Part shown: positions 7,439-26,905 of the stretch, piece after piece
Numbering within the stretch: position 1 is the stretch's first letter
How the letters are laid out: each line of letters opens with the position of its first letter
From: a bacterium
GTDB lineage: Bacteria; Chloroflexota; Dormibacteria; Aeolococcales; Bog-877
Assembly (NCBI GenBank): GCA_021809895.1
Contig: JAJZJU010000009.1
Span: 1-38,824 of the forward strand
Direction: 5' to 3'
Length of the DNA stretch: 38,824 nucleotides
Notes under the pieces: generated by a model
Database searches by the model: none
What the model saw: only the letters and a program-made list of their open reading frames with translations
Told to the model about the DNA's origin: nothing
Program-made: the position numbers and the translations under genes

Positions 7439-8446
7439 TCAGTGCGGCGGCCTGGGTGGCGGCGACTCCTTGAGGAAGCGATAGTGCTCTCGCCAGACCA
7501 GTCGCGGCAGGCCCAGCCATCGGGGCAGGTCCCGCAGCCCGGGGATGAACGGCACCAACACCAGCAAGGTGGACAGAAAGCCCATGATGAGGACCACCAT
7601 CAGGTCGGCGTTGGAGGCGGTCGAAACTAGCGGGATCTGGTACCAGAAGGTGAACAGCCACAGCCACGACTGGCCGGGGTACCTTCCGGTCTCGTTTGTC
7701 ATCCCCCACTGAGAGCTGGCCAGATGCTGGGCAGCGGCCAGGCCCGGAAAGTAGTTCCCATCGCCCAAGAACAGCAGCGGTCCCGTGTAGTTGGTGTCGT
7801 AGAAGTGGCCACTACGGACCAGCAGGGAGTCCAGGGCTCCCGACCTGGCATCCTGCAAGAGCGCCTGCATGATCACATTCAGGGGGCCATAGGCACCGGC
7901 GGGGACCGCCACCACCACCTGGTCTTTGACTCGGGCGTGCTCCAGCGCCGCGGCGTAGGCCGTGAGCCAGCCGCGACGCTGAGCCGCCAACGCCTGCCGG
8001 TAGCGGACCAGGGCTGCCGCCAGCGCGGGCCGACCCACGCTGGCCAAGGACAGAGGGCCGAGAACGTATGCCTGCGCGGCATCCACGGGCTGGTGGACCC
8101 CGGCCCACACCTGCGGCGCCAAGGGCCCCAGGGTCTGAACCGAGCCGCCGACGTCGCCGGAATCCCTTCCGTCAGCGTCGATGTTGTACGGGGGTCCGTA
8201 GTCCGCACTGATGGTGGTTCCCCGGAGCTCTCCAGTGGCCGTCCGCACGAAGTCAAGCGGCTGCGCGCGCGCCCAGCTCTGGACCGTGACGGGGGGCTGG
8301 TCCGGGGACGACAGCACCACAGACAGGATCAACACCACCACCAGCATCACACCGAGGACGACCGTGATCTCCTTGACCAGGTCGTAGGGGGAGGTAGGGA
8401 CCCCGCGGTAGTACTCCTCCTGGGTCAGTCTCTCTCGCCTGGCCAT
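7439..8446 (-). CDS. Divergent cytochrome b subunit IV-like protein with a very long loop
   Basis: This 335-residue protein is encoded directly after a b6-like cytochrome b, with a TGATG start/stop overlap. One hydrophobic helix lies at about 27-46, then a hydrophilic stretch of about 210 residues, then a helix near 283-303 and a basic tail. The segment after the loop (P-G-Q-S-W-L-W-L-F-T-F-W-Y-Q-I-P, 257-272) can be laid against the cytochrome b EF loop P-E-W-x-x-L-x-L segment. The catalytic PEWY glutamate is missing and the third C-terminal helix is absent. It is therefore probably a highly altered C-terminal half of cytochrome b. The role of the loop is unknown. Assignment rests on gene order and this weak alignment. 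Confidence 0.6.
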   Translation of the reverse strand: MARRERLTQEEYYRGVPTSPYDLVKEITVVLGVMLVVVLILSVVLSSPDQPPVTVQSWARAQPLDFVRTATGELRGTTISADYGPPYNIDADGRDSGDVGGSVQTLGPLAPQVWAGVHQPVDAAQAYVLGPLSLASVGRPALAAALVRYRQALAAQRRGWLTAYAAALEHARVKDQVVVAVPAGAYGPLNVIMQALLQDARSGALDSLLVRSGHFYDTNYTGPLLFLGDGNYFPGLAAAQHLASSQWGMTNETGRYPGQSWLWLFTFWYQIPLVSTASNADLMVVLIMGFLSTLLVLVPFIPGLRDLPRWLGLPRLVWREHYRFLKESPPPRPPH

Positions 8447-9090
8447 CAGGCCCGTTCCTCAGGGGGCTTGACCACACCGCGGCGCCTGACCAGGATCACG
8501 TGAAACCCGACCATGGCGGTCACCAGGGCCGGAAACAAGACGATGTGCAGACCGTACATCTGACCGAAGTTCAGCACGTTGAAGAAGGCGCCCGCCCCGG
8601 TCGCGTTGACGGCGTCCTTGGCGTTGACCGCGATCCACTGGGCGTCGAAGTTCTGCTGCGAGATGTAACCCGTGAAGGCAGTGACGATCGCGATCAGAAA
8701 GATCACCACCCCCACCATCCAGGTGGCGGCCCGGCCGTCACGCCAGCCCTGGGCGAAGTACTGGCCCCAGAGGTGCAGGACCATGAATATGAAGAACATC
8801 TGCACAGACCAGAAGTGGACGCTGTTCATGAAGAGGCCCTGAGGTGACACGTGCCACCACTGGGGGCCGAAGAAGGCGAGGATCACCCCACTGGCAACCA
8901 CCAGGACCAGCGACGCGATCGCAGCCACCCCGAAGATGTAGACCCAGGATCCGACGTAGGCGGGCTCCTGGTCGGGGAGCAGGTGCTCGATCGGCAGCTC
9001 CCGCTGGATCCGCCGGCGCAGAAACACCGTCCAGCTTTTGGAGGCCTGGTCCCCGCCATCACCCAGCGGCGGTGTCTGCTCAACGCTCAC
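8446..9090 (-). CDS. Cytochrome b6-like di-heme cytochrome b, N-terminal half
   Basis: This 214-residue protein has four predicted helices and binds two b hemes in a quinol-oxidising complex. H92 and H106 (13 residues between) in helix B and H182 and H197 (14 between) in helix D are the four heme ligands. The 14-residue spacing is the b6f/menaquinol type rather than the mitochondrial one. The cd-loop differs from the norm: where cytochrome b usually has L-P-W-D-Q after T-G-Y, this has S-Q-Q-N-F-D-A-Q-W. The start is GTG at 9090, overlapping the upstream 55-residue gene by 11 bases. No Rieske gene sits in this operon; the only one is at 24819-25340. Confidence 0.82.
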   Translation of the reverse strand: MSVEQTPPLGDGGDQASKSWTVFLRRRIQRELPIEHLLPDQEPAYVGSWVYIFGVAAIASLVLVVASGVILAFFGPQWWHVSPQGLFMNSVHFWSVQMFFIFMVLHLWGQYFAQGWRDGRAATWMVGVVIFLIAIVTAFTGYISQQNFDAQWIAVNAKDAVNATGAGAFFNVLNFGQMYGLHIVLFPALVTAMVGFHVILVRRRGVVKPPEERA

Positions 9091-9247
9091 GGTCCCGCTC
9101 CCGATAGCTCCGGCGGCGCCGGCTCCGGCCTGGGAAGGGCAGGAAGAGCGCCAGCACGAACAGCAGGATCATGAACAGGATCACGCCCAGATTGGGCAGG
9201 GAGATCAGGATGATGCCCCAGTGCAGATAGGGGGCCGGCTGATTCAT
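9080..9247 (-). CDS. Small single-helix membrane protein, likely subunit of the cytochrome b complex
   Basis: ATG 9247 opens a 55-residue frame ending at TGA 9080-9082. It starts M-N-Q-P-A-P-Y-L-H-W-G and has a hydrophobic region from about 11 to 38. It ends in an Arg-rich tail (R-S-R-R-R-R-S-Y-R-E-R-D-R-E-R), which predicts a cytoplasmic C-terminus. It overlaps the cytochrome b start by 11 bases, with a weak GAGG ribosome site. By position it resembles the tiny one-helix subunits (PetG/L/N type) of b6f complexes, but I see no sequence-level proof. Confidence 0.6.
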   Translation of the reverse strand: MNQPAPYLHWGIILISLPNLGVILFMILLFVLALFLPFPGRSRRRRSYRERDRER

Positions 9248-10894: not shown

Positions 10895-10947
10895 CGATGG
10901 CATCCTCCAAAAACGGCTGGCACGGGCACCCTCATAGTTCAGCCCGG

Positions 10948-10959
10948 TATCCTGACATC
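10948..10959 (+). promoter_or_regulatory. Leaderless-type -10 box of the cupredoxin gene
   Basis: TATCCT (10948-10953), a six-base spacer, then ATG at 10960. No ribosome site is present. The spacing is identical to that before the enoyl-CoA hydratase gene. Confidence 0.45.
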
Positions 10960-11454
10960 ATGTCGGTCCACCTCCCTGCTGCGGCCACCAGGCGTTTGCC
11001 CGGGCCACGCTTGGCGGTGGGGCTGCTGGCGGTGGTGGTCACCTTCATGGTGGCAGGGTGCGGCGCGTTCGGCGACGTGGGCCAGCCCACCGCCGCCCAC
11101 ATCCTGACCGCACCAGGAAACCCGGTACAGCAGGCCAACAGCAAGCTCTCCCTGCAAGTGCTGCCCAAGCCTCCCGCCAACCCCGAATACAAGGTGATCA
11201 TCTATCACAACGTGAACACCGTGGGCGAGTTCGTCCCCGAGACCCTGACGGTCCCGGTGGGGTCCATCGTGGAGTGGGTCTGGACGGATCAATACGACCA
11301 GCACAATGTCTGGTGGGTCGATCAGCAGCTGATCAACTCCCCCACCAAGGGAGCCGGCTTCAAGTGGGCCGTCAAGTTCCTGGCCCCAGGTGTCTATGAC
11401 TACTACTGCACCCTGCATCCGGGAATGCTAGGACGTGTTGTCGTCACCGGCTAG
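10960..11454 (+). CDS. Blue-copper (plastocyanin/amicyanin-like) lipoprotein
   Basis: This 164-residue exported protein has a lipoprotein signal: basic N-region, hydrophobic 18-31, and lipobox V-A-G-C with C34 as the lipidated residue. The mature part is a cupredoxin. H115 (D-Q-H-N-V) and C150-x2-H153-x2-M156 supply a complete type 1 copper site in the amicyanin/plastocyanin arrangement. It should carry single electrons on the outer face of the membrane. With no c-type cytochrome in the window, it is a candidate acceptor for a cytochrome b complex, but that link is inference. The following lipoprotein gene overlaps its 3' end by 20 bases. Confidence 0.85.
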   Translation: MSVHLPAAATRRLPGPRLAVGLLAVVVTFMVAGCGAFGDVGQPTAAHILTAPGNPVQQANSKLSLQVLPKPPANPEYKVIIYHNVNTVGEFVPETLTVPVGSIVEWVWTDQYDQHNVWWVDQQLINSPTKGAGFKWAVKFLAPGVYDYYCTLHPGMLGRVVVTG

Positions 11455-11866
11455 GGTTCCCAAGCGGCTCCTGCCGCTGCTGGGAGCCATGCTGCTGGCA
11501 GGCAGCCTGCTGGCCGCCTGCGCCGCTCCCACCGCGGCCCCCCGAGCGGCGCTCCAGGACTTCCTGGTGGATGTCCATGCCCACTCGGTCGTCTACGCCT
11601 ACACGCTGCTGACCAACTCGGCTGAGGTCCGCACCCCCTTCACCCCCTTCTTCAACTGGGTCAAGGCCAGCAAAGCCAACTTCAAGATCGTCTCCATCCA
11701 CATGGTCAACGCAGGTGACGCTGAGGCGACCGTGGCCGTCAGCTCCCCGGGGGCGTCCACCAGAGACATTCATGTGCAGATGGTGGAGTCCGGCAATGCC
11801 GGCGACTGGCTGGTCAACGCGCCGTTCGTGACCCAAGGGACGCGCGCGGTGCAGCTGTTCCAGTAG
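11435..11866 (+). CDS. Lipoprotein, possibly NTF2-like fold
   Basis: This 143-residue protein has a signal peptide ending in lipobox L-A-A-C (about residue 29). The mature region of about 115 residues has a short helix followed by alternating strands (F-K-I-V-S-I-H-M-V, A-T-V-A-V-S-S, I-H-V-Q-M-V-E-S), the pattern of small NTF2-like domains. No catalytic motif is visible. The start is GTG 11435 or TTG 11438, both inside the 3' end of the cupredoxin gene, so the two lipoproteins are co-expressed and may work together. Confidence 0.65.
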   Translation: MLSSPARVPKRLLPLLGAMLLAGSLLAACAAPTAAPRAALQDFLVDVHAHSVVYAYTLLTNSAEVRTPFTPFFNWVKASKANFKIVSIHMVNAGDAEATVAVSSPGASTRDIHVQMVESGNAGDWLVNAPFVTQGTRAVQLFQ

Positions 11867-21733: not shown

Positions 21734-22204
21734 TCAGGCCCGAGAACCAGTCTCCGGGACTCCCCCGACCGGCTTGAGATTGCCGAAAATGTCCTGCTCG
21801 GCCTCCTCCCCTCCCCCGGCCAGTCCCCGTGGCGGCAGCTTGTCGGAGCCCTTCTCGGCCAGCCCCATCACGTGGTCGCTTATCCCCTCCTTGCGCAGCA
21901 CATTCCAGCCCTCCTCGAGGGAGAGGTCGTTCTGGACCACCACCAGGTCCCCTTCGGTGTGGACATCCCAGCCGATGTTCTCCAGCCTCCTCAGAACGTC
22001 GCTGACGATCGCTATACGCTCGTGGATGAGCTTTCCCGCCGCCGCCACCCTCACCGAAACCGGCAGGTTGGCCGGCGTGGGACGGTCGGGGAAACCGAAG
22101 GAGTGCATCTCCAAGTAGGTCTCCATGCCCCTGGATATCGGCTCCCTGGTCACCTCGGAGAACTCGTCAGCCGCCCTGCGGATCGGCCGGAAGATCAGCT
22201 TCAC
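21734..22204 (-). CDS. Conserved-looking soluble protein of the bc/bd operon, unknown function
   Basis: A 156-residue protein with no signal peptide, membrane helix or cysteine. It has a mixed alpha/beta pattern (V-S-V-R-V-A-A-A-G-K-L-I-H-E-R-I-A-I-V, then W-D-V-H-T-E-G-D-L-V-V-V) and a Gly/Glu-rich C-terminus. It starts with GTG overlapping the CydA-like stop by 4 bases (GTGA), so it is translated with the oxidase subunits. It may be an assembly factor or peripheral subunit, but nothing in the sequence shows this. I do not recognise the family. Confidence 0.7.
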   Translation of the reverse strand: MKLIFRPIRRAADEFSEVTREPISRGMETYLEMHSFGFPDRPTPANLPVSVRVAAAGKLIHERIAIVSDVLRRLENIGWDVHTEGDLVVVQNDLSLEEGWNVLRKEGISDHVMGLAEKGSDKLPPRGLAGGGEEAEQDIFGNLKPVGGVPETGSRA

Positions 22205-23601
22205 GGGTGGGTCTCGACGGGCAGGATCACGGACACGCCCGAGTTGCTGGCGGGGCCCTGCAACGCAGGCCCGGTCGAGCTGGGGGGCGAGTAGTTCTGC
22301 TGTTGATTGATCAGCATGTGGTTGGTGATCAGGAACGGCCCGCGACTGTTCTCCCGAATGAAGCCCATCAGGGCCATGATCAACGACACCGCCACGCCGA
22401 CCGCGATCAGGGAGATGGCCTGGCCCCGACCCGCGTCACCCCAGCGCAGCTTGCCCCGGCTGACGTACTTCAAATAGGTGGTGAGAGCCACGATGGTGAC
22501 CCCGGTGAAGGCGACCAGCGCGGTCAGCTTCCAGGGGATCATGGCGCCCCAGGGGATGAGCAGACCTCCCTGCCAGATGGGCACGTTGGCGTTGGCCGCG
22601 AAGACGCTCTCGTAGCTCCAGGCCAGCGAGGAGGGCGTGGAGATGAGCATCCAGGCCCCGAAGGAGAGCAGGGTACAGACGGCGAGCGCCGGCGAGCGAA
22701 ATCCGCTGGCCCTGACCCGTCGCCACAGATAGAAGATGCCCACGGTGAAGATCGCGCCCAGCAGGAACACCTGGAACAAGAAGGCGACACTGAGCCCTCC
22801 CAGCATCATGTCGTACCAGGAGGCGTAGGCGTGCAGCTGGATCTCCTTGGCGTACTCCCAACCCACCAAGGGCTGCGCGATCGTGAACCCGATCGCGTAG
22901 ATGAGGCCGTAGTGCCCCATCCAGTCGAGGTAGGGACGGACATCTGGGCGGTGTCCGCTGCGCAGCAAAAGCCGGATTCCGGCGGTCAGGGCGATGATCG
23001 CGCCCGCCCAGGCGATGTTGCCAACCATGCGGTGGATCTCGAGCGGGATCTCGGTCGGGTTCATCATGATCGCCGGGAGATTGAACGCGTTGCGAGGGGT
23101 CAGCATGTAGGAGGCGACCATGTTGATCAGCAGCATCTGCAGCTCGGCGTTGATGAAGAGCAGGACCTCGAGCCCCACTCGAAGCCCTCTGACGCGACCG
23201 AGCCGATCCCAGCGGGCGTAGAGGGGATACAGGCATATGATCTCGCCCACGAAGGCAGCCGCCTCCGCCACCAACGGCCAGAACAGAACCCTCTGGACGT
23301 CGATCCAGAAGTGCGCCCACAGCCCGAGGAACAGGATCATGACCGCGAAGATCGCCAACGATCCCCCGACCGCGAAGGTGGCACCGAGCGCTGTAACCAG
23401 ACCCTTTGAGAACCGGTCGTAGCGCTCGCTCTTGCGCTTCCAACCGACAAAGTCCGAGACCGCCAGGATGATGTAGCCGCCCTGCTGCCAGGCCGCGAAC
23501 TGGACATGGGTCAGCATCAGTAGCGCCACCAGAGCGGTGGCCACCCCGGTCGAGATCGGGACCTGGGTGAGCTGGGGTGTGGCGGCGGCTAAGAGTGGCA
23601 T
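22201..23601 (-). CDS. CydA-like cytochrome bd oxidase subunit I homologue
   Basis: This 466-residue protein with about nine hydrophobic segments resembles CydA. H32 in helix I (L-T-H-V-Q-F) sits where E. coli H19 does. E113 and E120 followed by A-R-W-D-R-L match the E107 region and G-W-D-R-L. H190 (L-E-I-H-R-M-V-G-N-I-A) matches H186. I-R-E-N-S-R-G-P (415-422) matches E-V-G-R-Q-P. The long Q-loop of classical CydA is missing, as in the divergent quinol oxidase groups found in Nitrospirota, Chloroflexota and archaea. It starts 1 base after the cytochrome b stop. No cydB or cydX is present; the partner is probably the second CydA-like protein. Confidence 0.82.
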   Translation of the reverse strand: MPLLAAATPQLTQVPISTGVATALVALLMLTHVQFAAWQQGGYIILAVSDFVGWKRKSERYDRFSKGLVTALGATFAVGGSLAIFAVMILFLGLWAHFWIDVQRVLFWPLVAEAAAFVGEIICLYPLYARWDRLGRVRGLRVGLEVLLFINAELQMLLINMVASYMLTPRNAFNLPAIMMNPTEIPLEIHRMVGNIAWAGAIIALTAGIRLLLRSGHRPDVRPYLDWMGHYGLIYAIGFTIAQPLVGWEYAKEIQLHAYASWYDMMLGGLSVAFLFQVFLLGAIFTVGIFYLWRRVRASGFRSPALAVCTLLSFGAWMLISTPSSLAWSYESVFAANANVPIWQGGLLIPWGAMIPWKLTALVAFTGVTIVALTTYLKYVSRGKLRWGDAGRGQAISLIAVGVAVSLIMALMGFIRENSRGPFLITNHMLINQQQNYSPPSSTGPALQGPASNSGVSVILPVETHP

Positions 23602-23602
23602 A

Positions 23603-24817
23603 TCAAAGGTTGAAGAGGCGGCCCACGGCCAGCATGGCCTCGAAGACGAGGAACAGGACCGTGAAGAGTCCGGGGACCATCACCTCCGGCCTCCGCCAGG
23701 GCTCCCGACCGGGGGTCCGGTCAAGGAAGGGTACCAGCATGAGAAGGGTGGTACCTATGCCGGGGACGACGAACACGCCGACTGGGATCATCCAGGCCTG
23801 CGGGAACTGGACCAGAAGCTGGTCCAGAGGCAGGAAGAACCACTCCGGAGTGGGCACGTAGTTGAGGGCGGCCGGGTTCGCCGCCCTCTCCAGCGGTGCC
23901 CCCACCACGATCGCCATCACGAAGATGATCAGGACCAGGGCGAAGCTCACCACCGCGTCCTTGAACACCTGGGAGGGGAAGAACTCGTCCAGGTCGACAG
24001 GTACCGCGTAGCCTGGATCGCTGGGCAGGGCGGGGTAGGGAGCCTCCGCGGCCGCCATCCGTCGGGAGCGCTCAACCTCGGTCTCCTCCTCCACCCCCTC
24101 GTAGTTCACCCAGGAGCCGTGCTCGCCGTGGCGCCGCAGCAGGATCAGGTGCAGCCCGATCATCGGCACCAGAAGTGCCGGTAGCAGCCAGATGTGGATG
24201 GCGAAGAAGCGGGTCAGGGTGGCCGGTCCCATCTGGGGACCGCCTCGCAGGATCTCCTCGATCTGGGTGCCGAAGAGCGGGAAGTAGCTGATCACGTGGG
24301 TCACCACGGTCGCCGTCCAGTAGGCCGCCTGGTCCCACGGCAGCATCGACCCGGTGATTCCCAAGCCAAGGACGAGCAGGAATAGCACCACCCCGATGAT
24401 CCAGTTGAGTTCCCTGGGCTTCTTGTAGGAGCCGCTGACAAAGGTGCGGACCATGTGCAGCCCGATCACGATGAAGAGGATGTAGGCGCCCCAGAGGTGC
24501 ATCCCCCTGACGATCGCGGCGAACTCGTCGTGGTGTTCGATGAAGTTGAGGCTCTCCCACGCCTCGGTGGTGGAGGGCACGTAGGTCCAGAGCAGGAACA
24601 TCCCGGTAACGATCTGCAGGATGATCACGATCAGGGTTGCGGACCCCAGCGAATACGCCCATGCACCGCGGCGTGGCACCGCCTCGTAAAGCAGCTGGTG
24701 CATGAGGTCGGTGACCCCCAGGCGCTCGTCCACCCAGCGATAGGTGGTGGCCATCAGCCCGGAAACCGGGCGCGTCAGCTTGGCCGCGATCGGACTCCGC
24801 TCCAACCCCTGGGCCAA
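23603..24817 (-). CDS. Full-length cytochrome b of a bc-type quinol complex
   Basis: This 404-residue protein fuses both halves of cytochrome b. Heme ligands are H107 and H121 (13 between) and H208 and H223 (14 between, b6f/menaquinol type). The Qo-site motifs L-P-W-D-Q and P-E-W-F (PEWY variant) are present. The C-terminal part has three helices. I choose the TTG at 24817, just past the Rieske stop, because GAGGGG lies about 7 bases upstream; the first ATG is at 24754. It stands between the Rieske gene and a CydA-like gene, so quinol oxidation here is probably coupled to a bd-like oxidase. Confidence 0.93.
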   Translation of the reverse strand: MAQGLERSPIAAKLTRPVSGLMATTYRWVDERLGVTDLMHQLLYEAVPRRGAWAYSLGSATLIVIILQIVTGMFLLWTYVPSTTEAWESLNFIEHHDEFAAIVRGMHLWGAYILFIVIGLHMVRTFVSGSYKKPRELNWIIGVVLFLLVLGLGITGSMLPWDQAAYWTATVVTHVISYFPLFGTQIEEILRGGPQMGPATLTRFFAIHIWLLPALLVPMIGLHLILLRRHGEHGSWVNYEGVEEETEVERSRRMAAAEAPYPALPSDPGYAVPVDLDEFFPSQVFKDAVVSFALVLIIFVMAIVVGAPLERAANPAALNYVPTPEWFFLPLDQLLVQFPQAWMIPVGVFVVPGIGTTLLMLVPFLDRTPGREPWRRPEVMVPGLFTVLFLVFEAMLAVGRLFNL

Positions 24818-24818
24818 C

Positions 24819-25340
24819 TCAGTTCCCCTCGGTGAGGACGTTGCGGACGTAGAGCGTGGTGCCGACCAGCTTGTGCTGGTAGCGGAAAAGCGGTTTCGGC
24901 GGCGGCCCGGCGATGTTGGTCCCTTCCATGCTGTACTCCCCGCCGTGGCAGGGGCAGAAAAAGACGTTGAGGTTGATGTCCCAGTGCACGTCGCACTGCA
25001 TGTGGGTGCACACATTTGAGAGCGTGATCAGCTGCACCTGGTTGGAGAGGTTCACCTTCACCACGTAGACGGTGCGAGGAACCGGCGGCACCTGCCAGGC
25101 GTCGCCTCCCTGGTTGAGCATCACCACGTAGGCGGTCGGGACCCCCACCGGCACGTGCTTGATGTCAGCCACCAGGACCCAGGGCTGTTTGAACTTGTAA
25201 AAGGCGGGACTCAAGATCGAGCCCACAATCGGCGCCGCGATCAGCAGGCCCGTCCCGGCCCCGGCCGCGTTGATCCCCATGATCATGAACTTGCGGCGGG
25301 ACATACGCCGCTTGGACCTCGGCAGCTGCGCCTCAGCCAT
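24819..25340 (-). CDS. Rieske 2Fe-2S protein
   Basis: This 173-residue protein has a twin-arginine-like N-terminus (M-S-R-R-K-F-M) and one membrane anchor (about 17-45), then the Rieske fold. Cluster ligands are C111-T-H113 and C129-P-C131-H132, with C116 and C131 forming the usual disulfide. The Pro loop G-P-P-P-K-P follows. The ATG at 25340 overlaps the upstream two-helix protein gene by 8 bases. It is the only Rieske gene in the window and could serve either cytochrome b complex. Confidence 0.95.
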   Translation of the reverse strand: MAEAQLPRSKRRMSRRKFMIMGINAAGAGTGLLIAAPIVGSILSPAFYKFKQPWVLVADIKHVPVGVPTAYVVMLNQGGDAWQVPPVPRTVYVVKVNLSNQVQLITLSNVCTHMQCDVHWDINLNVFFCPCHGGEYSMEGTNIAGPPPKPLFRYQHKLVGTTLYVRNVLTEGN

Positions 25341-25566
25341 TGCCCTGGACCACGATCAGGATCAGCAGGGAAAGGCATAGCCCCAAGAAGAAGACCATGG
25401 TGAAGGTGCTGGCACCGATCGTGAGCCAGGCTGACATGGGGTCCCCGACCGAGAAGAGTTGGCGAACCCGACGCATCGCCATGGTGAAACCCACGATGGT
25501 GATGGCGAAGAACCCGGTGATGATGATGCCGAGATACCAGGCCGACTCGAAGTACTGATAGCTCAC
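25333..25566 (-). CDS. Small two-helix membrane protein of the bc/bd operon
   Basis: This 77-residue protein has hydrophobic segments at about 10-30 and 45-73, separated by a basic loop (R-R-V-R-Q-L-F). The start is GTG, overlapping the CydA-like stop by 4 bases, and the end overlaps the Rieske start by 8, so translation is coupled on both sides. It is probably a structural subunit, by analogy to the small CydX/CydB-like or PetL-like partners. No motif names it. Confidence 0.72.
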   Translation of the reverse strand: MSYQYFESAWYLGIIITGFFAITIVGFTMAMRRVRQLFSVGDPMSAWLTIGASTFTMVFFLGLCLSLLILIVVQGNG

Positions 25567-26837
25567 GGCAGCACCCCAGGAGGAGCATCGAAGTTCTGAG
25601 CCGACTGATGCAGGCTGAGCAGGCAGGCGCTCTGGCCGGTGGTCTGGTCGATCCCACAGGGTAGCTTGGCGTTCTCCTTGATCACGCCCATGTAGATGGA
25701 GAGGATGGCGGCCGCCAATCCCACCACCACGATCCCCCGGCTGGCGGCCGGGCTGATCCGCAGAGTCAGTGCCCCAGCCTGCCGCAGAGAGCGGATGTAG
25801 AGAACCAGGTTCGCCGCCGTCGCCAGGAAGGCGATAAGGAGGGCGACGTAACGCAGCAGGACCACCTGTTGGGGGATCACCGATGCCGGCAGAGCGACTC
25901 CCGCCATCCCCAGCAGTGCTACCACGGTGAGGGTGGCGGCTGGGCCACTCTCGGCCACCTCCTGGTTGTGGCGCCAGAATACCCAGTTGGCTCCCAACAC
26001 CACGATCGCCAGCAGCACCACCTGGCCAACGAACATCGACCCCGAGCCGAAGATGAAGAGATTGTCGAAGGTCCCCGGAGCCGCAGTCTTGATGGTGTCA
26101 GCCAGCAGGAAGCCGGTGATCGGCTGGGCCATGAGGAAGATGGACCCAATCCCGAAATTGATCCTGGCTGCCCAGCGCTGATAGATGGCCTCGGCCTCGG
26201 TCTTGGCCCGGCGGCCCCGCCAGACGGCGACGGCCGCCAGGAACAGCGCCGCCCAGGAGAGGGTCGCTCCCGCGTAGTGGAAGAGGAGCGGCCAATAACT
26301 CGGAGAGAACATCGAGTGGGCCGCGTTGACGGCGGTGCCGGGGGTGAGCGCGTAGCTGTCCAGCTGGACGATCATGAAGAGAAACAGGAACTGGATGGCG
26401 GCGAAGATGAAGCCGACCGCCAGATGAAGTCGGGGGTTCATCTTGTCCCACCGGTAGACGTAGACCAGCAGAAGGGGAATCCCCACGAAAAAGCTGGCGA
26501 ACGCGATGGTCAAAGGCAGCAGCAGCAGGTTCAGCAGAGTGCCGATCAGGCGCCCATAGAGCCCGGTCAGGAGCACCACCGCGAAGACGGCCCAGGTGGC
26601 GCCGAAGCTGTACAGGTACAGGATCGCGTGGGCCAGGGTCTTCGAATAGCGCAGGCAGTGCTCGTCTCCCCCGCGGCGGCGGCCGGCCAGCTCCATGAAG
26701 GGCATGATCGCGGACGAGCCCAGGATGAAGCCCACGACCACGATGTGGATCAGGAATACTGCCCCGATCGCAATCTCGGCCCCGAGGGTGCCGAAGGGCA
26801 GTCGTGGTTGTGGCACCGGGAAAGCTGACAGCAGCAC
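25563..26837 (-). CDS. Second CydA-like membrane protein (CydA'-type)
   Basis: A protein of about 424 residues with eight or nine hydrophobic segments. CydA features remain: H31 in helix I (F-L-I-H-I-V-V-V-G-F), Y-R-W-D-K-M (like G-W-D-R-L), H177 (L-L-F-H-Y-A-G) and K-E-N-A-K-L-P near the end. The acidic residues that precede the W-D-R-L motif in catalytic CydA are replaced (I-A-F-A-S-F-F-V-G-I). It looks like a duplicated, partly degenerate CydA acting as structural partner, comparable to CydA' in described CydAA' oxidases. GTG 26837 gives a natural N-terminus; a TTG at 26876 is the alternative. It is the first gene of the operon. Confidence 0.75.
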   Translation of the reverse strand: MLLSAFPVPQPRLPFGTLGAEIAIGAVFLIHIVVVGFILGSSAIMPFMELAGRRRGGDEHCLRYSKTLAHAILYLYSFGATWAVFAVVLLTGLYGRLIGTLLNLLLLPLTIAFASFFVGIPLLLVYVYRWDKMNPRLHLAVGFIFAAIQFLFLFMIVQLDSYALTPGTAVNAAHSMFSPSYWPLLFHYAGATLSWAALFLAAVAVWRGRRAKTEAEAIYQRWAARINFGIGSIFLMAQPITGFLLADTIKTAAPGTFDNLFIFGSGSMFVGQVVLLAIVVLGANWVFWRHNQEVAESGPAATLTVVALLGMAGVALPASVIPQQVVLLRYVALLIAFLATAANLVLYIRSLRQAGALTLRISPAASRGIVVVGLAAAILSIYMGVIKENAKLPCGIDQTTGQSACLLSLHQSAQNFDAPPGVLP

Positions 26838-26905
26838 TGCGCCACCATGCTGACGGGATGAGACCCCCTCTGGCAACTTCCCATCGTGATCAACCGCTCC
26901 GCGAC

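What the first reader, a model, noticed from the sequence alone, without database searches (positions are those of the whole stretch)
7439..9247. Second, highly divergent cytochrome b complex with a 210-residue loop and no PEWY
Seen: an intact four-histidine b6-like subunit followed by a protein in which the PEWY position reads P-G-Q-S. The EF loop has grown from about 25 to about 210 residues, the last helix is missing, and the L-P-W-D-Q Qo motif of the b6 half is also replaced. A complex with hemes but without standard Qo residues may not do Q-cycle bifurcation; it may transfer electrons across the membrane or use another donor. No Rieske gene is in this operon.
Basis: partly seen in the sequence, partly recalled or inferred. 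Interest (0 to 1): 0.66.

Follow-up and report, generated by a model that had tools for sequence, protein, structure and literature searches.

The report
Rieske-free cytochrome b complex of acidophiles
Three overlapping genes encode a conserved membrane electron carrier related to half of the respiratory cytochrome bc complex; it has kept the heme-binding part, has replaced the outer quinol-splitting part with an unrecognised folded domain, and recurs in (mostly acid-loving) bacteria of three phyla without any assigned function.

Summary
At 9247-7439 (minus strand) three overlapping genes encode P3 (55 aa, one TM helix), P1 (214 aa, b6-like: four heme histidines and four heme-packing glycines intact) and P2 (335 aa: TM helices resembling E and F, about 210 residues between them, no helix G, no PEWY glutamate). 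P1 also lacks LPWDQ.

This is not a local oddity. P1-P2 is conserved in all 80 loci fetched from Dormibacterota/Chloroflexota, Actinomycetota and Bacillota, with P3 in 76. All three proteins are one polypeptide in six actinobacterial loci, so they form one complex. A Rieske motif lies nearby in only 2 of 89 loci. The P1 clade separates from canonical cytochrome b with 100/100 support. P2 matches nothing in Pfam, NCBIfam or the PDB; its outer loop is predicted as a confident helical domain. A complete Alicyclobacillus genome carries copies but no detectable canonical bc complex.

Best reading: a Rieske-free di-heme transmembrane complex exchanging electrons with the quinone pool inside and an unknown partner, or a remodelled site, outside. 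Partner, direction and p-side chemistry are unproven. In Alicyclobacillales rusticyanin-like proteins occur only beside it (15/29 versus 0/30), but not in other phyla.

The parts
9080..9247 (-). P3, 55-aa single-TM subunit; predicted N-out, Arg-rich C-terminus inside
   Evidence: homologue just upstream of P1 in 76 of 80 loci; fused to P1 in L072 and L074, and to P1-P2 in six actinobacterial loci.
8446..9090 (-). P1, 214-aa cytochrome b6-like subunit; heme His 92/106 and 182/197; SQQNFDAQ in place of LPWDQ; no Cys
   Evidence: Pfam PF13631 6e-13 and PF00033 9e-12; PDB best match cytochrome b6 1q90_B, E 8e-17 with the family profile; conservation; tree.
7439..8446 (-). P2, 335-aa subunit: TM helix E-like (23-45), extracytoplasmic domain (about 50-245), EF-like helix (260-270), TM helix F-like (280-300), no helix G
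   Evidence: AF2 model m8e7324e2645f, pLDDT 80, domain core above 90; 31 invariant positions in 68 sequences; no Pfam, NCBIfam, PDB-sequence or PDB-fold match; weak profile match to canonical cytochrome b helices E-F once the domain is cut out.
7676..8300 (-). P2 insert, about 210 residues between helix E and the PGQSW segment, with conserved YGPPYN and QWGxxNETGxYPGQxWLW motifs
   Evidence: mostly helical, pLDDT 94-98 in the core of the fused homologue; no structural match.

Best explanation
P3-P1-P2 is one membrane complex: a Rieske-free, di-heme relative of the b6/subunit-IV core of bc complexes. Shown from sequence: the heme scaffold of P1 is intact, the outer (p-side) quinol-oxidation and Rieske-docking signatures are gone, and P2 carries a large insert, predicted to fold into a domain on the outer face. 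Inferred: electrons exchange with the quinone pool at the inner (n-side) heme, cross the membrane through the two b hemes, and are given to or taken from a partner or substrate at the outer face under the new domain, without bifurcation. Which way electrons flow and who the outer partner is remain open; the partner is probably not encoded in the locus.
For: Intact four His and four Gly, invariant across the family. Loss of nearly all canonical p-side invariants (LPxDQ, GxxTLxR; shortened A-B and C-D loops) and of the PEWY Glu. Fusions and gene order show one complex, with topology that puts the insert outside. Insert is predicted with confidence as a folded domain. Rieske in 2 of 89 neighbourhoods; no conserved cytochrome c or other redox neighbour. 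Present in genomes with no detectable canonical bc complex (17 of 29 positives in the order of A. ferrooxydans, including the complete chromosome of Alicyclobacillus sp. ALC3), so it does not need that complex. Separate deep clade, 100/100.
Against: No cofactor, quinone site or activity was measured. The n-side loop of P1 has also diverged (the canonical RxxxxGxxKxPRE is only partly kept), so inner-side quinone exchange is inferred. The Cys that carries heme c_n in b6f is absent. P2 homology to subunit IV is only moderately supported (not significant; P = 1.7e-4 after cutting out the insert, and one reversed control reached 7e-4). Relative placement of P1 and P2 in the AF2 model is poor (large rmsd).
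Confidence: 0.5

Rival explanations
1. It still oxidises quinol at the outer side, with replaced residues (the conserved NETGxYPGQxWLW and QQNFDxQW segments forming a new Qo-like pocket), as a quinol:quinone or quinol:acceptor enzyme, possibly borrowing the Rieske protein encoded elsewhere.
For: The replacement motifs are themselves strongly conserved, as an active site would be; a Trp and an aromatic-Asp-x-Gln trace remain at the old Qo positions. The window genome does encode a Rieske protein with its canonical cytochrome b.
Against: No Rieske in the operons; Rieske-docking C-D loop shortened and rewritten; the Glu of NETG is not conserved in all subtypes (NHDE in B, KERG in C, NELW in D); many positive genomes lack a detectable canonical bc complex.
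Confidence: 0.2
2. Iron-linked enzyme: passes electrons between the quinone pool and Fe(II)/Fe(III) or a blue-copper carrier at the acidic outer face (ferric reduction, or uphill quinone reduction during iron oxidation).
For: Named positive organisms include Alicyclobacillus ferrooxydans, A. tolerans, Ferroacidibacillus and Acidiferrimicrobium; A. tolerans and Acidiferrimicrobium australe are listed as ferric-iron reducers and iron oxidisers in PMC8790237. In Alicyclobacillales strong rusticyanin-like hits occur in 15 of 29 positive and 0 of 30 negative genomes (Fisher 2e-6).
Against: The association is not corrected for shared ancestry. It is weak in the window's relatives (3 of 46 positive genomes, none in the window genome) and absent in Actinomycetota (0 of 10). 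A. ferrooxydans itself gave no strong hit. Most hosts are not known iron oxidisers.
Confidence: 0.2
3. It has no catalytic electron-transfer role: a redox or potential sensor, or an assembly/stability factor derived from cytochrome b.
For: No redox gene is conserved beside it; histidine kinases and response regulators recur near it in part of the Dormibacterota/Chloroflexota loci; kdp genes (K+ uptake) lie nearby in three Alicyclobacillus loci.
Against: The full heme scaffold is invariant over great divergence, which a non-redox role would not need; regulators are not conserved neighbours across phyla.
Confidence: 0.08
4. Degenerate, non-functional cytochrome b paralogue.
For: Loss of the canonical motifs.
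Against: 31 invariant positions in P2 and 56 in P1 across three phyla, conserved operon, up to six profile matches per genome in Alicyclobacillales.
Confidence: 0.02

Closest known systems
Cytochrome b6f / menaquinol:cytochrome c (b6c) complexes: cytochrome b6 plus subunit IV
   Same: Four-helix di-heme b6 fold, b6-type His spacing of 14/15, split into a b6 half and an E-F half, small single-TM subunit present.
   Different: No Rieske or cytochrome f/c in the operon, no LPWDQ, no PEWY Glu, helix G missing, about 210-residue insert, no heme c_n Cys in P1.
Cytochrome bc1/bcc cytochrome b (QcrB), including the window's own at 23603-25015
   Same: Foldseek of the fused model finds QcrB/cytochrome b first.
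   Different: Separate clade 100/100; 28% identity to the window's own cytochrome b over 166 residues; Qo residues lost.
ExtP, b-type cytochrome of selenite/tellurite reduction operons (NCBIfam NF040969)
   Same: Best NCBIfam score for P1 (57 bits), a b6-like protein by NCBI's name.
   Different: Far below the equivalog cut-off of 290 bits; no P2-like partner tested for it here.
Cytochrome b561-type and superoxide-oxidase-like di-heme proteins
   Same: Rieske-free di-heme transmembrane electron carriers; works-like analogy only (own knowledge).
   Different: P1 of the window matches the cytochrome b6 family, not PF01292; a type B homologue scores on PF01292 only below its cut-off.

Membership tests
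Rieske/cytochrome b (bc1, b6f) complexes | Cytochrome b with four heme-ligating His in helices B and D | tested here: met
   Invariant His 92/106 and 182/197.
Rieske/cytochrome b (bc1, b6f) complexes | PEWY-type Qo motif | tested here: not met
   No Glu in any register; PGQSWLW.
Rieske/cytochrome b (bc1, b6f) complexes | LPWDQ-type motif in the C-D loop | tested here: not met
   SQQNFDAQ; canonical L, P, D, Q, Y lost at those columns.
Rieske/cytochrome b (bc1, b6f) complexes | Rieske iron-sulfur subunit | tested here: not met
   Not in the operon; motif in 2 of 89 neighbourhoods. A Rieske encoded elsewhere cannot be excluded as partner.
Rieske/cytochrome b (bc1, b6f) complexes | c-type cytochrome or equivalent high-potential subunit | tested here: not met
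   No conserved CxxCH protein beside the cassette.
Cytochrome b6 / Cytochrome_B N-terminal family (PF00033, PF13631) | P1 above the curated score | tested here: met
   45.7 against 27.2 bits and 49.5 against 27 bits.
Cytochrome b C-terminal / subunit IV (PF00032, TIGR01156) | P2 matches the family profile | tested here: not met
   No PF00032 match in 68 members; a single TIGR01156 match at 0.039.
Cytochrome b C-terminal / subunit IV (PF00032, TIGR01156) | Collinear homology of helices E, EF, F by profile-profile comparison | tested here: inconclusive
   P = 1.7e-4 over 84 columns with the insert removed, but a reversed control reaches 7e-4, and it is not significant with the insert.
ExtP (NF040969) | Equivalog score cut-off of 290 bits | tested here: not met
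   57 bits for the window protein.
Rieske/cytochrome b (bc1, b6f) complexes | Bifurcated quinol oxidation (Q cycle) | not testable with these tools
   Needs biochemistry.

The most novel reading that the evidence does not exclude
An undescribed class of bioenergetic complex: a Rieske-free, non-bifurcating cytochrome b enzyme with its own folded outer domain, exchanging electrons between the quinone pool and an external partner, spread mainly among acidophiles of three phyla and able to exist without a canonical bc complex.
Probability: 0.4. Interest if true: 0.85.

Novelty: new variant of a known kind. Interest (0 to 1): 0.68.

Why it matters
Cytochrome b is known almost entirely as the heart of Q-cycle complexes working with a Rieske protein. 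A conserved lineage that kept both heme sites but discarded the quinol-splitting site shows the fold re-used for something else, and gives a natural test of which parts of the Qo site are needed for bifurcation. It is also a concrete candidate for an unassigned electron route in acidophiles, where partners for iron oxidation and ferric-iron reduction are still debated, and P2 is an unrecognised protein family with an apparently new domain.

Tried and rejected
Locus-encoded partner: neighbours cluster only among close relatives (glmU, prs, enoyl-CoA hydratase), so none is a credible dedicated partner; the cupredoxin lipoprotein at 10897 is shared near the cassette only in three near relatives. 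Dependence on the canonical bc complex: 12/29 versus 12/30 genomes, no association. Rusticyanin as a universal partner: holds only in Alicyclobacillales. P2 against PDB sequences and folds: nothing. Full-length P2 against subunit IV: not significant. Plasmid records (searched with a type B P2): none. Literature searches found no description of this cassette; the library holds open-licence papers only, so earlier mention elsewhere is possible.

Full report
OBSERVATION. The three minus-strand ORFs are real and overlap by 11 bases (P3/P1) and 1 base (P1/P2), as in a translationally coupled operon. P1 is a cytochrome b6-family protein by Pfam, and its family profile finds cytochrome b6 of b6f complexes first in the PDB (1q90, E 8e-17). 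P2 has no convincing Pfam, NCBIfam or PDB match, alone or as a family. The exact residues at the PEWY position depend on register: PGQS by position, [QA][SV]WL or WLWL by alignment.

SPREAD. A genome-collection scan with P1 returned 80 loci: Dormibacterota and Chloroflexota MAGs, Actinomycetota (Solirubrobacterales, Acidimicrobiaceae, Conexibacter, Trebonia, Acidiferrimicrobium) and Bacillota (Alicyclobacillus, Ferroacidibacillus). P2 follows P1 in all 80 and P3 precedes it in 76. In six actinobacterial loci P3, P1 and P2 are one ORF, and in two others P3-P1 are fused; this is the strongest evidence that they form one complex. By P2 profile the family is in 42 of 301 sampled genomes of the window's phylum, 10 of 296 of the phylum of Trebonia, 29 of 59 of the order of A. 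ferrooxydans and 3 of 249 of its phylum. The link to acid habitats is a reading of organism and sample names (own knowledge), not a statistical test.

WIDER FAMILY. Genomes with the cassette also hold more divergent copies, each followed by a P2-like gene: type B (LSRGDFFSQW; several copies in Alicyclobacillus), type C (LARGDWESQF) and type D (MMTNWDSQW; second copy in Trebonia). Types A-D form one side of a 100/100 branch against canonical cytochrome b of the same organisms and b6; the long branches of C and D make their exact place unsure.

ANATOMY. Columns invariant in nine canonical proteins were compared with the new family. The heme scaffold (four His, paired Gly) is kept, while the canonical p-side signatures (LPxDQxxY, GxxTLxR, parts of the A-B loop) are lost and both p-side loops of P1 are shorter. 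The inner side is partly kept (Arg, Trp, Gly of the B-C segment) and partly changed. P2 is predicted with two TM helices, an EF-like amphipathic helix, and an extracytoplasmic helical domain of high confidence (pLDDT 94-98 in the core of the fused homologue). Foldseek of the fused model returns cytochrome b of bc complexes; P2 alone returns nothing. With the insert cut out, P2 aligns collinearly to canonical helices E-EF-F (P = 1.7e-4), but a reversed control came close (7e-4), so descent from subunit IV is likely rather than proven. Topology from the fusions and the Arg-rich P3 tail puts the insert outside (inference).

CONTEXT. No Rieske (2 of 89 loci), no conserved cytochrome c and no conserved redox neighbour. 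Bacillota type A loci add a fourth small gene of about 75-85 aa after P2. In the order of A. ferrooxydans the cassette is independent of the canonical bc complex (12/29 against 12/30), and 17 positive genomes, including the complete ALC3 chromosome, have no PF00032 match; some of the others are drafts. Rusticyanin-like proteins are confined to cassette-positive genomes there (15/29 against 0/30), but the test ignores ancestry and the pattern does not hold in Dormibacterota relatives (3 of 46 positives) or Actinomycetota (0 of 10).

MECHANISM. Shown from sequence: conserved gene set and fusions, intact heme scaffold, rewritten p-side, no locus-encoded Rieske. Predicted: folded outer domain. Inferred: inner-side quinone exchange, transmembrane electron transfer, an outer partner or substrate, no bifurcation. 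Main rivals are a remodelled outer quinol site and an iron-linked enzyme; both fit much of the evidence and the latter may be a special case of the main reading.

VERDICT. Function remains inferred.

Noticed in passing
window 22201-26876: The canonical cytochrome b (23603-25015) and Rieske (24819-25340) sit between two membrane proteins, of which 25563-26876 matches cytochrome bd oxidase subunit I (5.7e-14) and 22201-23601 has no Pfam match but looks like a similar polytopic protein; an unusual bc/bd-like cluster.
   Followed up: partly
L107, L156, L161: kdp potassium-uptake genes lie within about 8 kb of cassettes (type A and type B) in Alicyclobacillus mengziensis (two loci) and A. ferrooxydans. 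Possible link to the inside-positive membrane potential of acidophiles; the numbers are small.
   Followed up: partly
G018-G025 relatives (L113-L120): Canonical subunit-IV-like proteins of the sister family f2 carry KAPWYF instead of PEWF, so the Qo motif varies even among canonical complexes of this class.
   Followed up: no
window 10897-11454 and 11435-11866: A plastocyanin/azurin-family cupredoxin lipoprotein next to a second small lipoprotein-like gene; this pair is near the cassette only in three close relatives.
   Followed up: partly
L096 and L102: Two cassettes of different subtype on opposite strands within about 5 kb in Bacillota MAGs.
   Followed up: no
L157 (Alicyclobacillus sp. 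ALC3, type C): The type C copy keeps the Cys that carries heme c_n in b6f (YCMGG), lost in A, B and D, and lies near thioredoxin-like, CsoR-like and multicopper-oxidase-like genes (gene names by eye).
   Followed up: no
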